Source of the DNA: Thauera carbonicopians
GTDB lineage: Bacteria; Pseudomonadota; Gammaproteobacteria; Burkholderiales; Rhodocyclaceae
DNA: 34,100 nucleotides
Direction of reading: 5' to 3'
Assembly: GCF_025699485.1 (NCBI RefSeq)
Contig: NZ_JANUXN010000029.1
Coordinates: 1-34,100, forward strand
A program made the position numbers and the translations under genes. Each line of letters starts with the position of its first letter. Within the stretch, counting starts at the first letter, position 1. Below the pieces are notes generated by a model, which searched no databases, was not told the DNA's origin, and was given only the letters and a program-made list of their open reading frames with translations. This document shows positions 9,641-13,129 of this stretch, in pieces.

Positions 9641-10657
9641 ATGAACGCCCTTTCCCGTCCTCCTTTGCCATCATCCCATGTCGGCCGCTTCGCGCCTTCG
9701 CCCAGCGGCCCGCTGCATTTCGGCTCGCTGGTCGCGGCGGCGGGCAGCTATCTGGAAGCGCGCCGCCACGGCGGGCGCTGGCTGCTGCGGATCGAGGACG
9801 TCGACACGCCGCGCACCGTGCCCGGTGCGGCCGAAGGCATCATCGCCACGCTGGCGCGCTTCGGCTTCGAATGGGATGGCGAGATCGTCTGGCAGAGACG
9901 CCGCAACGATGCCTACCGCGCCGCGCTGGAGCAATTGAAGGCTGCCGGCCACGCCTTTCCCTGCGCCTGTACGCGGCGCGAAATGGCGGATTCGGCGCTC
10001 GCCCGCGACGGTTCGCGGCGCTACCCCGGCACCTGCCGCAACGGCCTGCCGCCCGGGCGCACCGCACGCGCATGGCGGGTGCGGGCCGAAGGCGTGATCG
10101 GCTTCGACGACGCGATCCAGGGCTGGCAGCAGCAGGACCTCGCGCTCGATGCCGGCGACTACGTGGTGCTGCGCGCCGACGGCCTGTTCGCCTACCAGCT
10201 GGCCGTGGTGGTGGATGACGCCGATGCGGGCGTCACCGACGTCGTGCGCGGCGCCGACCTGCTCGATTCGACCGCCCGCCAGATCCATCTGCAAGGCCTG
10301 CTCGGCATGCCGCAGCCGGCTTACGCCCACCTGCCGGTCGCCACCAACGCCGCGGGCGAGAAGCTGTCGAAGCAGACCCTCGCCCGCGCCATCGACGAAC
10401 ATCCGCCGGCGGCGGCACTGTGCGCGGCGCTGCGCTTTCTCGGCCAGGCGCCGCCGGCCGGACTCAAGCGCGCCCCACTGGCCGAAGTCTGGCACTGGGC
10501 CTTCCGGCACTGGCAACTCGACGCCGTGCCACGGCGGCGCCACGCCCCCGCAACCACCATCGACCCACCGAGGACATCATGCACCCCAACGACCTCTCCG
10601 CCGACCGCGGTGCCATCCGCGAGCTGCTCGCCACCGCCCGCAGAATCGCGATCGTAG
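9641..10657 (+). CDS. gluQ: Glutamyl-Q tRNA(Asp) synthetase
   Basis: A truncated GluRS-like enzyme that attaches glutamate to the queuosine base of tRNA(Asp). It has the class I signature as SGPLHFGS (residues 22-29) and KLSK at 241-244. The zinc ligands are C108, C110, Y128 and C132, matching the C-x-C...Y-x3-C pattern of the family. The anticodon-binding domain of full GluRS is absent, as expected. The length of 338 residues exceeds the usual ~300. The last ~40 residues (Ser/Thr/Pro-rich, after LDAVPRR) read through the ribosome site of the next gene and overlap it by 79 bases, so the natural C-terminus could be disturbed. The start at MNALSRPP places the catalytic core at the normal distance. 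Confidence 0.9.
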
Positions 10658-11007
10658 GCATCTCGCCGAAGCCGCAGCGGCCGAGCAACGCGGTCGCACG
10701 CTACCTGCGCGATGCCGGCTATACCATCATTCCGGTGAATCCGGCCTACGACGAGGTGCTGGGCGAGAAGTGCTACCCCAGCGTGCGCGAAGCGCCCGGG
10801 CCGATCGACATCGTGGACGTGTTCCGCAAGCCCGACGAAGTGATGGCAGTGGCCGAGGACGCGATCGCCGCCGGTGCCGGCTGCCTGTGGCTGCAGCTCG
10901 GCGTGATCGCACCCGAAGCGGCGCAACGGGCTGCCGACGCCGGGCTGAAAGTGGTGATGAACCGCTGCACCGAAGTCGAGCACATGGCGCTGGGCCGGCA
11001 GGGCTGA
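10579..11007 (+). CDS. CoA-binding (YccU-type) protein
   Basis: A 142-residue Rossmann-like protein of the CoA_binding_2 family: [18 protein letters not shown] near residues 20-37 forms the nucleotide-binding turn, followed by [13 protein letters not shown] and [13 protein letters not shown]. The CLWLQLGV and later NRCTEVEH segments are characteristic. Family members bind CoA; the biological role is unclear. The ATG at 10579 follows GAGGA at a good distance. The gene begins inside the 3' end of gluQ (79-base overlap). Its TGA (11005-11007) overlaps the first degenerate repeat of the CRISPR mini-array. Confidence 0.88.
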
Positions 11008-11213
11008 AGACTGCCGTGCAGACAGCTCAGGAATAAAAGGCCTTTTGAAGCCCTTTGAAGGTAATTTTCACCGCCGTATAGGCAGCTTAGAAAAGCTCGA
11101 AACCTCGGTTCGGCTCGCTTGCAGTCTTCACTGCCGTATAGGCAGCTTAGAAAGATTCGAGCGTCGGGATGATGCCGTGGTGCGCCTTCACTGCCGCATA
11201 GGCAGCAAACGCG
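11006..11213 (+). CRISPR. Orphan type I-F CRISPR mini-array, 4 repeats and 3 spacers
   Basis: Four 28-bp repeats lie in exact 60-bp register (11006-11033, 11066-11093, 11126-11153, 11186-11213), separated by three 32-bp spacers (11034-11065, 11094-11125, 11154-11185). The repeat core CTGCCGTATAGGCAG with the 3' handle CTTAGAAA is that of type I-F systems (28-bp repeat, 32-bp spacer, 5-bp stem). The handle orientation indicates crRNA sense on the plus strand. Repeats 2 and 3 are near-identical. The first matches the consensus at 21 of 28 positions and the last has lost the 3' handle. There are no cas genes in the window. No leader is possible without overlapping the upstream gene, so expression would depend on read-through. 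It may be a relic or a guide source for Cas proteins encoded elsewhere. Confidence 0.88.
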
Positions 11214-11225
11214 CATATAGAAACC

Positions 11226-12383
11226 TCAATGCTTGCCGCCGTAGCCCGCCAAGCCGATCGCCAGGCGGACGATCTGGTACGACGCCCAGGTCAGGACGCG
11301 CTGCAGCAGCGACAGCCGGCGCCAGTCCGACGGGCGCAGTTCCACCGCGCCGGCCTCCATCTCGCGCGCCAGGCTGGCGCGCAGCCCGGCGGCGAAGGCC
11401 TCGTCGTCGACGACGACGTTGGCCTCGCGCGCCAGCAGCAGGCTGAAGGCATCGATGTTGCTCGAACCCACCGTCGCCCAGCGGCCATCCACCACCGCCA
11501 CCTTGGCGTGTAGCTCGCTGCGGTGGTATTCGAACAGCCGGATGCCGTGCTGCATGAAATACGGGTAGAGCGCGCGCGTGGCGTGGCGCTGCAGCGGGTG
11601 GTCGGCCACGCCCTGCAGCAGCAGGATGACCTCCACGCCGCGCTCGGCGGCATCGACCAAGGCCTGGCGGAAACGCCGGCCCGGAAAGAAGTAGGCATTG
11701 GCGATGACGACCTCGTTCCTGGCTCTGCCGATCGCATCCAGGTAGGCATTCTCGATCGCATGGCGAAAGCGCAGGTTGTCGCGCACGACGAAGGCGGCGC
11801 GGATGTCGCCGGCCGCCTCGGTCTGCGCCGGCGCGCCCAGCGGCTGATGCGAACGGCGGCGGAAGCTGACCCATGACAGCAGGCGCCACAGGCGCTGCGC
11901 GGAAGCGAGGATCGGCGCCAGGATCGGCCCCTGCACATGCACGGCGTAGTCGTAGCGCGGATGCGCCGGGCCGTCCGCATGGAAATCGTCGATGATGTTG
12001 ATGCCGCCGACGAAAGCCTCGCGCCCGTCTATCACCACCACTTTGCGATGCAGGCGGCGCAGGCGATGGCGGCGCAGCGACAGCGCACGCAGTTCGGGAC
12101 GATAGATCAGGACCTTGACGCCGTTTTCGAGCAGCCGCGGCAACAGGTGGGCGACGAAGCTGCGGCCGCCGAAGCCGTCGACCATCAGCCTGACCTCCAC
12201 GCCGCGCGCGGCGGCACGTTCGAGCGCGGCGGCGATGCTGCGCCCGGTCTCGTCCGGCTCGAAGATGTAGCCCTGCAGGAAGATCTCCTGTCCGGCGCGG
12301 TCGATCGCGTCCCGCAGCGCGGGGAAATACTGTTCGCCGTTTTCCAGCAGACGCACCGCGTTGCCGGACAGGAAGGCGATCAA
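11226..12383 (-). CDS. clsB: Cardiolipin synthase B, phospholipase D family
   Basis: A 385-residue enzyme with two HKD motifs: H112-x-K114-x4-D119 (LHRKVVVIDG) and H292-x-K294-x4-D299 (LHAKVAVVDG), each followed by a G-G/S-x-N-I type strand. It condenses phospholipids to cardiolipin at the membrane. Hydrophobic C-terminal residues (about 365-385) may associate with the bilayer. The start is a TTG (12381-12383) that overlaps the upstream stop as TTGA. No better start exists before the first conserved residues (SGNAVRLLENGEQYF). An open frame continues upstream but runs through the preceding gene. The neighbour order phosphatase-clsB matches ybhP-ybhO(clsB) of E. coli. The 3' end abuts the CRISPR mini-array. 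Confidence 0.9.
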   Translation of the reverse strand: MIAFLSGNAVRLLENGEQYFPALRDAIDRAGQEIFLQGYIFEPDETGRSIAAALERAAARGVEVRLMVDGFGGRSFVAHLLPRLLENGVKVLIYRPELRALSLRRHRLRRLHRKVVVIDGREAFVGGINIIDDFHADGPAHPRYDYAVHVQGPILAPILASAQRLWRLLSWVSFRRRSHQPLGAPAQTEAAGDIRAAFVVRDNLRFRHAIENAYLDAIGRARNEVVIANAYFFPGRRFRQALVDAAERGVEVILLLQGVADHPLQRHATRALYPYFMQHGIRLFEYHRSELHAKVAVVDGRWATVGSSNIDAFSLLLAREANVVVDDEAFAAGLRASLAREMEAGAVELRPSDWRRLSLLQRVLTWASYQIVRLAIGLAGYGGKH

Positions 12384-13129
12384 GCCAGCGGCTCCAGTTC
12401 GGCCGTCAGCGCTGCGTGGTCGGAAATCTGCGCCCAGGGCGCGCCGAAGTGCACCTCGGCGCGCCGGATGCGGAAGCCCCGCACATAGATGCGATCGAGA
12501 CGGAAGAAGGGCAGCGCGCTCGGAAAGCTGCGCGCCGGCCGCCCGTGGTCGTTGCCGAAGGCTTCGACCAGGCCGAGCCGGCTGGCCAGCAGGCGGTCGG
12601 CGTGGTTGCGCCAGTCGTTGAAGTCGCCGGCGATGATCAAGGGCTCGCCTTCGGGCGCGACGTGTTCCATGCGTTCGGCCAGCGTTTCCATCTGCCGCCG
12701 CCGGCTGCCGCCCATCAACCCCAGATGCACGCAGACGCAATGCACCGGCGTGTCGAAGCCCGGCAGCTGCACCTCGACGTGCAGCAGGCCGCGGCGCTCG
12801 AAGCGATGGTCGGACACGTCGTGGTTGGCCTGGCTCAGGATCGCATGGCGGCTGAGGATGGCGTTGCCGTGGTGGCCGTGGTCATACACCGCATTGCCGC
12901 CATAGGCCGTCTGCTGCCAGTTCTCCTCGGCGAGGAACTCGTGCTGCGGCAGCACGGGCCAGTTCGGGTGGCGCTCGGGGTGGCGCAGGTGCAGCCCCTG
13001 CACTTCCTGCAGGAAGACGAGATCGGAATCCAGCGTACGCAGGCGGTCGCGCAGTTCGTGCACCACCATGCGGCGGTTGAACTGCGAAAAGCCCTTGTGG
13101 ATGTTGTAGGTACAGATGCGCAGGTTCAT
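12380..13129 (-). CDS. Endonuclease/exonuclease/phosphatase family protein, YbhP-like
   Basis: A 249-residue member of the EEP superfamily with the standard active-site series: N in TYNIHKG (7-13), E in FLQEVQG, H in CVHLGL, D and N in IAGDFNDW, and the C-terminal SDHAAL. These residues bind Mg and attack phosphoesters. The substrate is unknown. A tie to membrane lipid metabolism is suggested by its coupling (4-base TTGA overlap) with clsB, an arrangement conserved in E. coli as ybhP-clsB. It has no signal peptide, so a cytoplasmic location is likely. The ATG at 13127-13129 begins directly with the first conserved strand (MNLRICTYN), which fits the family. Confidence 0.88.
   Translation of the reverse strand: MNLRICTYNIHKGFSQFNRRMVVHELRDRLRTLDSDLVFLQEVQGLHLRHPERHPNWPVLPQHEFLAEENWQQTAYGGNAVYDHGHHGNAILSRHAILSQANHDVSDHRFERRGLLHVEVQLPGFDTPVHCVCVHLGLMGGSRRRQMETLAERMEHVAPEGEPLIIAGDFNDWRNHADRLLASRLGLVEAFGNDHGRPARSFPSALPFFRLDRIYVRGFRIRRAEVHFGAPWAQISDHAALTAELEPLA

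What the first reader, a model, noticed from the sequence alone, without database searches (positions are those of the whole stretch)
11006..11213. Orphan type I-F CRISPR mini-array between convergent genes
Four 28-bp repeats of clear I-F type sit in an exact 60-bp register with three 32-bp spacers, with no cas genes in 34 kb and no room for a leader. It lies between a CoA-binding protein gene and clsB, both ordinary chromosomal genes. Short cas-less I-F arrays can be relics, targets of Cas proteins encoded elsewhere, guides for a CRISPR-associated transposon, or riboregulators. The two central repeats are nearly intact and keep the stem and the 3' handle, so processing by Cas6f (Csy4) in trans is possible.
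Basis: partly seen in the sequence, partly recalled or inferred. Interest (0 to 1): 0.75.

Follow-up and report, generated by a model that had tools for sequence, protein, structure and literature searches.

The report
Stray CRISPR mini-array inside a hairpin
A short, decaying CRISPR array far from its cas genes still carries memories of conjugative elements, and sister species show nought, one or three memories at the same host hairpin; the array itself is ordinary, its history is the interesting part.

Summary
The array is real. Four 28-nt type I-F repeats with three 32-nt spacers lie at 11006-11213 in an exact 60-nt register. It is orphan only within the window. The same genome (a Thauera) has a complete I-F operon and a 51-repeat array on another contig, and R3 is letter-identical to that array's repeat. 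Spacer 3 matches topB and spacer 1 a DUF3158 gene, both of conjugative elements; on Tistrella plasmid pTM3 they lie 2.3 kb apart on opposite strands. None of the 50 main-array spacers matched a plasmid record. The window array has no leader, and the stems of R1 and R2 are damaged, so only spacer 3 sits between two intact Cas6f hairpins. Best reading: a non-growing, partly decayed trans array that may still supply one anti-ICE guide. The less ordinary part is its birthplace. The outer parts of R1 and R4 are host flank, the inner parts CRISPR sequence. T. linaloolentis has one different spacer here; T. butanivorans has only the hairpin; one other Thauera, without an I-F match, has the same stem at the same offset after the stop codon. 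This suggests that CRISPR units entered a look-alike host hairpin, though loss of an older array cannot be excluded. Riboregulation is not supported; the CAST reading was tested only indirectly.

The parts
10579..11007 (+). CoA-binding protein gene (142 aa); its stop codon overlaps R1 by two bases
Evidence: within an ORF, start as used; conserved in sisters.
11006..11033 (+). R1: left 4 nt are host flank, right 7 nt CRISPR handle; stem broken
   Evidence: 9 of 28 mismatches; parts compared; fold
11034..11065 (+). Spacer 1; 28 of 32 to DUF3158 genes of conjugative plasmids or ICEs
11066..11093 (+). R2: 2 mismatches, one of them breaks the stem
11094..11125 (+). Spacer 2; no convincing target found
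11126..11153 (+). R3: identical to the repeat of the genome's main I-F array; stem intact
11154..11185 (+). Spacer 3; up to 31 of 32 to topB (topoisomerase III) of conjugative elements, CC upstream in some
11186..11213 (+). R4: left part CRISPR, right 7 nt host flank; stem intact
   Evidence: 7 mismatches
11226..12740 (-). clsB-like gene (start uncertain), convergent with the array

Best explanation
It is a genuine, partly decayed type I-F array that works, if at all, in trans. Read-through transcription from the CoA-binding gene would give an RNA that the Csy4 of contig C33 could cut at R3 and R4, releasing one canonical crRNA (spacer 3, handle CUUAGAAA) that loads the Csy complex and targets topB of incoming conjugative elements. 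Spacers 1 and 2 are bounded by damaged repeats and are probably weakly processed or silent. Without a leader the array should not acquire spacers. It sits inside a host hairpin whose CTGCC/GGCAG stem matches the I-F repeat stem; CRISPR units most likely entered there by recombination across that short identity. Shown: anatomy, the complete I-F system elsewhere, spacer matches, the chimeric end repeats, the sister states. Inferred: transcription, processing, interference and the route of entry.
For: Full I-F operon csy4-csy3-csy2-csy1, Cas2-3 and Cas1 on C33 beside a 51-repeat array; R3 identical to its repeat. Spacer 3: 31 of 32 in 3 of the 12 protospacers laid out, CC upstream in 4 of 12; 980 plasmid records match it at E up to 1, and 13 of the 15 listed are annotated as topoisomerase there, the other 2 having no annotation. 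Spacer 1: 9 plasmid records at 90-91%, 6 of 9 annotated DUF3158, 3 without a feature. Both hit pTM3, 2.3 kb apart on opposite strands, the pattern expected from primed acquisition (recalled). 0 of 50 main spacers, joined by N, match a plasmid record at E up to 1; such joining does not hide spacers 1 and 3. No target of spacer 3 in its own genome at up to 3 mismatches over 26 bases apart from the spacer itself. No leader. R3 and R4 stems intact. Sister states 0, 1 and 3 spacers; chimeric end repeats.
Against: No promoter-like site was found in 10300-11400 and no RNA data exist, so it may be silent. Both spacer-1 protospacers laid out have AC or TC, not CC, upstream, and 8 of 12 spacer-3 protospacers have CG; spacer 3 has a mismatch at position 2, in the seed, even in the best targets. 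Spacer 2 has no convincing target. Spacer 1 also matches one unannotated phage record about equally well (90.3% over 31 bases).
Confidence: 0.78

Rival explanations
1. Pure relic: the remains of an older, longer array that lost its leader and most spacers; T. butanivorans lost the rest by recombination between the first and last repeats; nothing is transcribed or used. (Overlaps with the best explanation, which leaves use open.)
For: R1 and R2 stems broken, no leader. T. butanivorans has exactly the product expected from recombination between first and last repeat. The tree puts the array-less sister inside the trio. R1 of both arrays has CTCAG in its right part, unlike the CTTAG of this genome's main array, which fits one shared older array.
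Against: R3, spacer 3 and R4 are intact in sequence or stem. The left arm of R1 is host flank in all three species, and one Thauera without an I-F match has the same stem at the same offset, so the hairpin may predate the array.
Confidence: 0.45
2. De novo array: the adaptation complex integrated spacers off-site into the host hairpin, treating it as a repeat (neo-CRISPR formation).
For: Hairpin with a repeat-like stem; nought, one and three spacers in sisters; no leader.
Against: Integration would duplicate the whole host site, but the inner parts (CTCAGAAA, CTTCA) are CRISPR sequence and not copies of the host arms.
Confidence: 0.1
3. Riboregulator of the CreTA or CreR kind, repressing a toxin or the cas operon.
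For: Ectopic, degenerate repeats with the first more diverged than the second resemble the CreTA layout described in PMC9458426 (abstract and passages).
Against: Two of three spacers match mobile elements; none matches the window or the cas locus clearly better than shuffled spacers. The best of twelve comparisons was spacer 3 at the cas locus, 17 of 27, reached by 1 of 20 shuffles. There is no room for a toxin gene between the convergent genes.
Confidence: 0.04
4. Guide array of a CRISPR-associated transposon.
For: I-F repeats occur in such elements (recalled).
Against: The resident I-F system has Cas1 and Cas2-3, which I-F3 systems lack (recalled). No Tn7-type gene was searched for.
Confidence: 0.02

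Closest known systems
Type I-F (I-F1) CRISPR arrays, as in Pseudomonas aeruginosa (recalled)
   Same: 28-nt repeat with CTGCC-n5-GGCAG stem, 32-nt spacers, CC upstream of some spacer-3 targets, mobile-element targets
   Different: no leader, no adjacent cas, four repeats, end repeats fused to host sequence
[quoted passage not shown] 2020; seen only as cited in PMC8616872)
   Same: short, degenerate, cas-distant, same repeat as a complete system in the genome
   Different: nested in a host hairpin, with sister species showing 0, 1 and 3 spacers at the same site
Off-site spacer integration, neo-CRISPR (Nivala et al. 2018; seen only as cited in PMC11788318)
   Same: array birth at a non-array site without a leader
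   Different: inner repeat parts are CRISPR sequence, not duplicated host site
CreTA ectopic repeats (PMC9458426, abstract and passages)
   Same: few, degenerate repeats, first more degenerate
   Different: no room for a toxin, no match to flanks beyond shuffles, spacers against mobile elements

Membership tests
Type I-F CRISPR array | 28-nt repeat of the I-F family | tested here: met
   R3 identical to the repeat of the cas-linked array, R2 2 mismatches; Rfam CRISPR-DR4. R1 and R4 diverge.
Type I-F CRISPR array | regular 32-nt unique spacers | tested here: met
   60-nt register; no similarity to each other or to the 54 spacers of the other two arrays
Type I-F CRISPR array | spacers match mobile elements next to a CC PAM | tested here: inconclusive
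   Spacer 3: CC in 4 of 12 protospacers laid out, CG in 8; spacer 1 matches but with AC or TC in the 2 laid out; spacer 2 no convincing target
Type I-F CRISPR array | leader at the 5' end | tested here: not met
   No similarity to the main leader, control positive. It is therefore filed as an isolated, non-growing array, not as an active locus.
Type I-F CRISPR array | cognate cas genes in the genome | tested here: met
Type I-F CRISPR array | crRNAs made and used | not testable with these tools
   needs RNA sequencing and interference assays
CreTA / CreR regulator | spacer-like part matches a nearby toxin or cas promoter | tested here: not met
   (window and cas locus only, sites with CC)
neo-CRISPR by off-site integration | both repeats are copies of the host site | tested here: not met
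CRISPR-associated transposon (I-F3) | I-F system without Cas1 and Cas3, linked to tns genes | tested here: not met
   Cas1 and Cas2-3 present; tns genes not searched

The most novel reading that the evidence does not exclude
A host hairpin whose stem mimics the I-F repeat works as a landing site at which excised CRISPR repeat-spacer units integrate by single crossover, so that leaderless daughter arrays are born away from cas and can later be excised again. The three related Thauera species would be snapshots with nought, one and three spacers.
Probability: 0.25. Interest if true: 0.6.

Novelty: new member of a known kind. Interest (0 to 1): 0.36.

Why it matters
How arrays arise away from cas genes is hard to see when no intermediate survives. 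Here an empty hairpin, a one-spacer and a three-spacer version are preserved at one orthologous site, with junctions that separate host from CRISPR sequence, so birth or loss of an array can be tested by sequencing more strains. The array also seems weighted to conjugative elements (2 of 3 spacers against 0 of 50 in the main array), but three spacers are too few to build on.

Tried and rejected
Pure off-site integration (neo-CRISPR) was disfavoured because the inner repeat parts are not copies of the host arms. Riboregulation was rejected on spacer matches. A chance repeat was rejected on shuffles. A conserved non-CRISPR unit was rejected because sister spacers differ. Spacer 2: nothing in phages at E up to 1, in 29 Thauera genomes at up to 3 mismatches apart from itself or in viral contigs by an exact 20-base stretch, and one weak plasmid hit (positions 4-27, 91.7%, E 0.7, a gluconokinase gene). 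Spacer 1: no viral contig by an exact 27-base pattern; 3 phage records, one unannotated at 90.3% over 31 bases (E 2e-3), two at 83.9%. Spacer 3 in phages: 5 records, partial matches only. The T. linaloolentis spacer matched 499 plasmid records; of the 12 listed, 5 are annotated as peptide synthetase there and 7 have no annotation under the match. It was not followed into its own genome. Anti-correlation between I-F and spacer-3-like topB across Thauera was considered and not claimed, because the list was cut and numbers are small. My first own-genome test for a spacer-3 target was badly made, since its pattern ran 8 bases into R4; one search repeats it on spacer bases alone. The 77-nt repeat at contig ends was followed: no plasmid match, weak relatives in 2 of 61 genomes besides this one, and the transposase of one relative has no match in this genome. 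Paper searches were made; I saw no array nested in a host hairpin among the listed titles and abstract starts, and the search for Thauera with CRISPR and type I-F found 0 papers. These searches do not show that it is absent from print.

Full report
What is there. Four 28-nt repeats lie at 11006, 11066, 11126 and 11186 with three 32-nt spacers between them. R1-R4 differ from the genome's main-array repeat by 9, 2, 0 and 7 bases. They are the best four + strand hits in the window; the next has 11 mismatches, and the best of each of 20 shuffled windows had 9-12, so R1 counts by its register more than by its letters. Rfam recognises R3 as CRISPR-DR4. R3 and R4 fold into the full 5-bp hairpin; R2 has a broken pair and R1 does not form it. 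R1 begins inside the stop codon of the CoA-binding gene, and 12 bases separate R4 from the end of the convergent clsB-like gene. There is no leader-like sequence upstream, no promoter-like site in 10300-11400, and no room for another gene.

Where its proteins are. The window is a whole contig (C21) of a 4.52-Mb, 48-contig genome. Contig C33 carries a 51-repeat, 50-spacer array next to csy4, csy3, csy2, csy1, a Cas2-3 fusion and Cas1. A second, five-repeat array lies between csy1 and cas3 on the other strand. Csy4 and Cas1 each have one match in the genome. Of 29 Thauera genomes, this one included, 5 have Csy4, one of them weakly, and 6 have I-F-like repeats by a pattern with up to 2 mismatches. 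T. butanivorans and T. linaloolentis have no Csy4 match; T. linaloolentis has no Cas1 match either, while T. butanivorans has Cas1, probably of another type.

What the spacers match. Spacer 3 matches a type IA topoisomerase gene (topB): 980 plasmid records at E up to 1, 13 of them over at least 80% of the spacer; of the 15 listed, 13 are annotated as topoisomerase there and 2 have no annotation. Of 12 protospacers laid out (10 from Thauera genomes, 2 from plasmids; further places were not fetched, and its list was cut), 3 have one mismatch, 1 has two, 1 three, 6 four and 1 five; 4 of 12 have CC immediately upstream, the I-F PAM (recalled), and 8 have CG. The single mismatch of the best three is at position 2. 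Spacer 1 matches a DUF3158 gene: 9 plasmid records at 90-91%, 6 of them so annotated and 3 without a feature. Two were laid out: 28 of 32, first 13 bases identical, with AC or TC upstream. It also matches one unannotated phage record at 90.3% over 31 bases. On one annotated plasmid DUF3158 lies among ssb, topoisomerase and other ICE-type genes; a second plasmid shows topoisomerase III near ssb and an ICE protein. Tistrella pTM3 carries both targets 2.3 kb apart on opposite strands; its record is unannotated. Spacer 2 has no convincing target. None of the 50 main-array spacers, joined by N, matches a plasmid record at E up to 1 (at 0.01). A control shows that joining with N does not hide spacers 1 and 3, although the weaker spacer-1 hits would fall near the limit of the longer query. 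The main array has weak hits to 50 phage records, 49 of them of Pseudomonas. This genome holds no target of spacer 3 at up to 3 mismatches over 26 bases apart from the spacer itself.

How it may work. If read-through RNA from the CoA-binding gene is made, Csy4 can cut at R3 and R4 and release a canonical spacer-3 crRNA. Spacers 1 and 2 have a damaged repeat on their 5' side. The array should not grow, since it has no leader. These steps are inference; no RNA was seen.

Where it came from. At the same site T. butanivorans has 44 nt from stop codon to stop codon with one hairpin, and T. linaloolentis has two repeats with one different 32-nt spacer. Comparing parts of the repeats: the left 4 nt of the first repeat in this genome and in T. 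linaloolentis match the T. butanivorans flank (1 and 0 mismatches) and not CRISPR (4 and 3); its right 7 nt match CRISPR (1 and 0) and not the flank (6 and 6). The last repeat is the mirror image: left 4 nt CRISPR (0 and 1 mismatches; flank 3 and 4), right 7 nt flank (1 and 3; CRISPR 6 and 7). So the arrays lie inside the core of a hairpin with host arms. A stem CTGCC-n3..6-GGCAG occurs in 4 of 25 orthologous loci of up to about 4 kb, only at this site in each: the three species above and G002, where CTGCC starts 3 nt after the in-frame TGA, the offset seen in T. butanivorans. G002 has no Csy4, no Cas1 and no I-F repeat match. My reading is that the hairpin came first. Against it, G017 and G013, as near in the tree, lack the stem, as do the other 19 loci, so G002 could also be a coincidence or an emptied site. 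In the clsB tree the trio, G002, G017 and G013 form a clade (100/99) whose inner order is open; this genome and T. butanivorans pair (100/100) with T. linaloolentis next (94/93), so the presence of an array needs at least two changes: one entry and one loss, or two entries. Against two independent entries, R1 of both arrays has CTCAG whereas this genome's main repeat has CTTAG, which fits a shared older array with later replacement of its inside. Pure off-site spacer integration is disfavoured because it would duplicate the host arms.

Comparison and verdict. By repeat, spacing and spacer matches this is a type I-F array; by lack of leader and linked cas it belongs with isolated arrays, a kind already described (Shmakov et al. 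2020, seen only as cited in PMC8616872, passages). Off-site array formation is known from Nivala et al. 2018 (seen only as cited in PMC11788318, passages). Ectopic degenerate repeats with regulatory roles are described in PMC9458426 (abstract and passages). The array is ordinary; the hairpin nesting and the three sister states raise it somewhat.

Noticed in passing
L019-L025 (ends of contigs C11, C24, C25, C26, C43, C45, C47): Seven contig ends share 74-77 nt with the perfect hairpin GTTTGACTGCC-GTATA-GGCAGTCAAAC, whose core is the stem-loop of this genome's CRISPR repeat. Probably the end of a multi-copy insertion element (inference); weak relatives (76% and 72%) in two other Thauera genomes, one beside an IS110-like transposase by my reading of its sequence, no family search run.
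   Followed up: partly
L018:7676-7943: A second, five-repeat I-F array on the opposite strand inside the cas operon, between csy1 and cas3, without a leader like that of the main array.
   Followed up: partly
L072 and L076, about 1501-1524 in each: Single near-complete I-F repeats at unrelated sites in T. linaloolentis and in G003, both without a Csy4 match.
   Followed up: no
L083:1781-1812: The one spacer of T. linaloolentis reads, by my translation, as the AMP-binding motif YVIHTSGSTGR; whether it hits a gene of its own genome was not tested.
   Followed up: no
G008:C2:398784-404527: An I-F array with irregular repeat spacing (about 50-60 nt) and long interruptions, as far as a pattern with 2 mismatches shows it.
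   Followed up: no
window:10773-11216 (-): A 147-aa open frame runs through the whole array because 60 nt is 20 codons; its repeated FLSCLYG peptides could be mistaken for a repeat protein.
   Followed up: no
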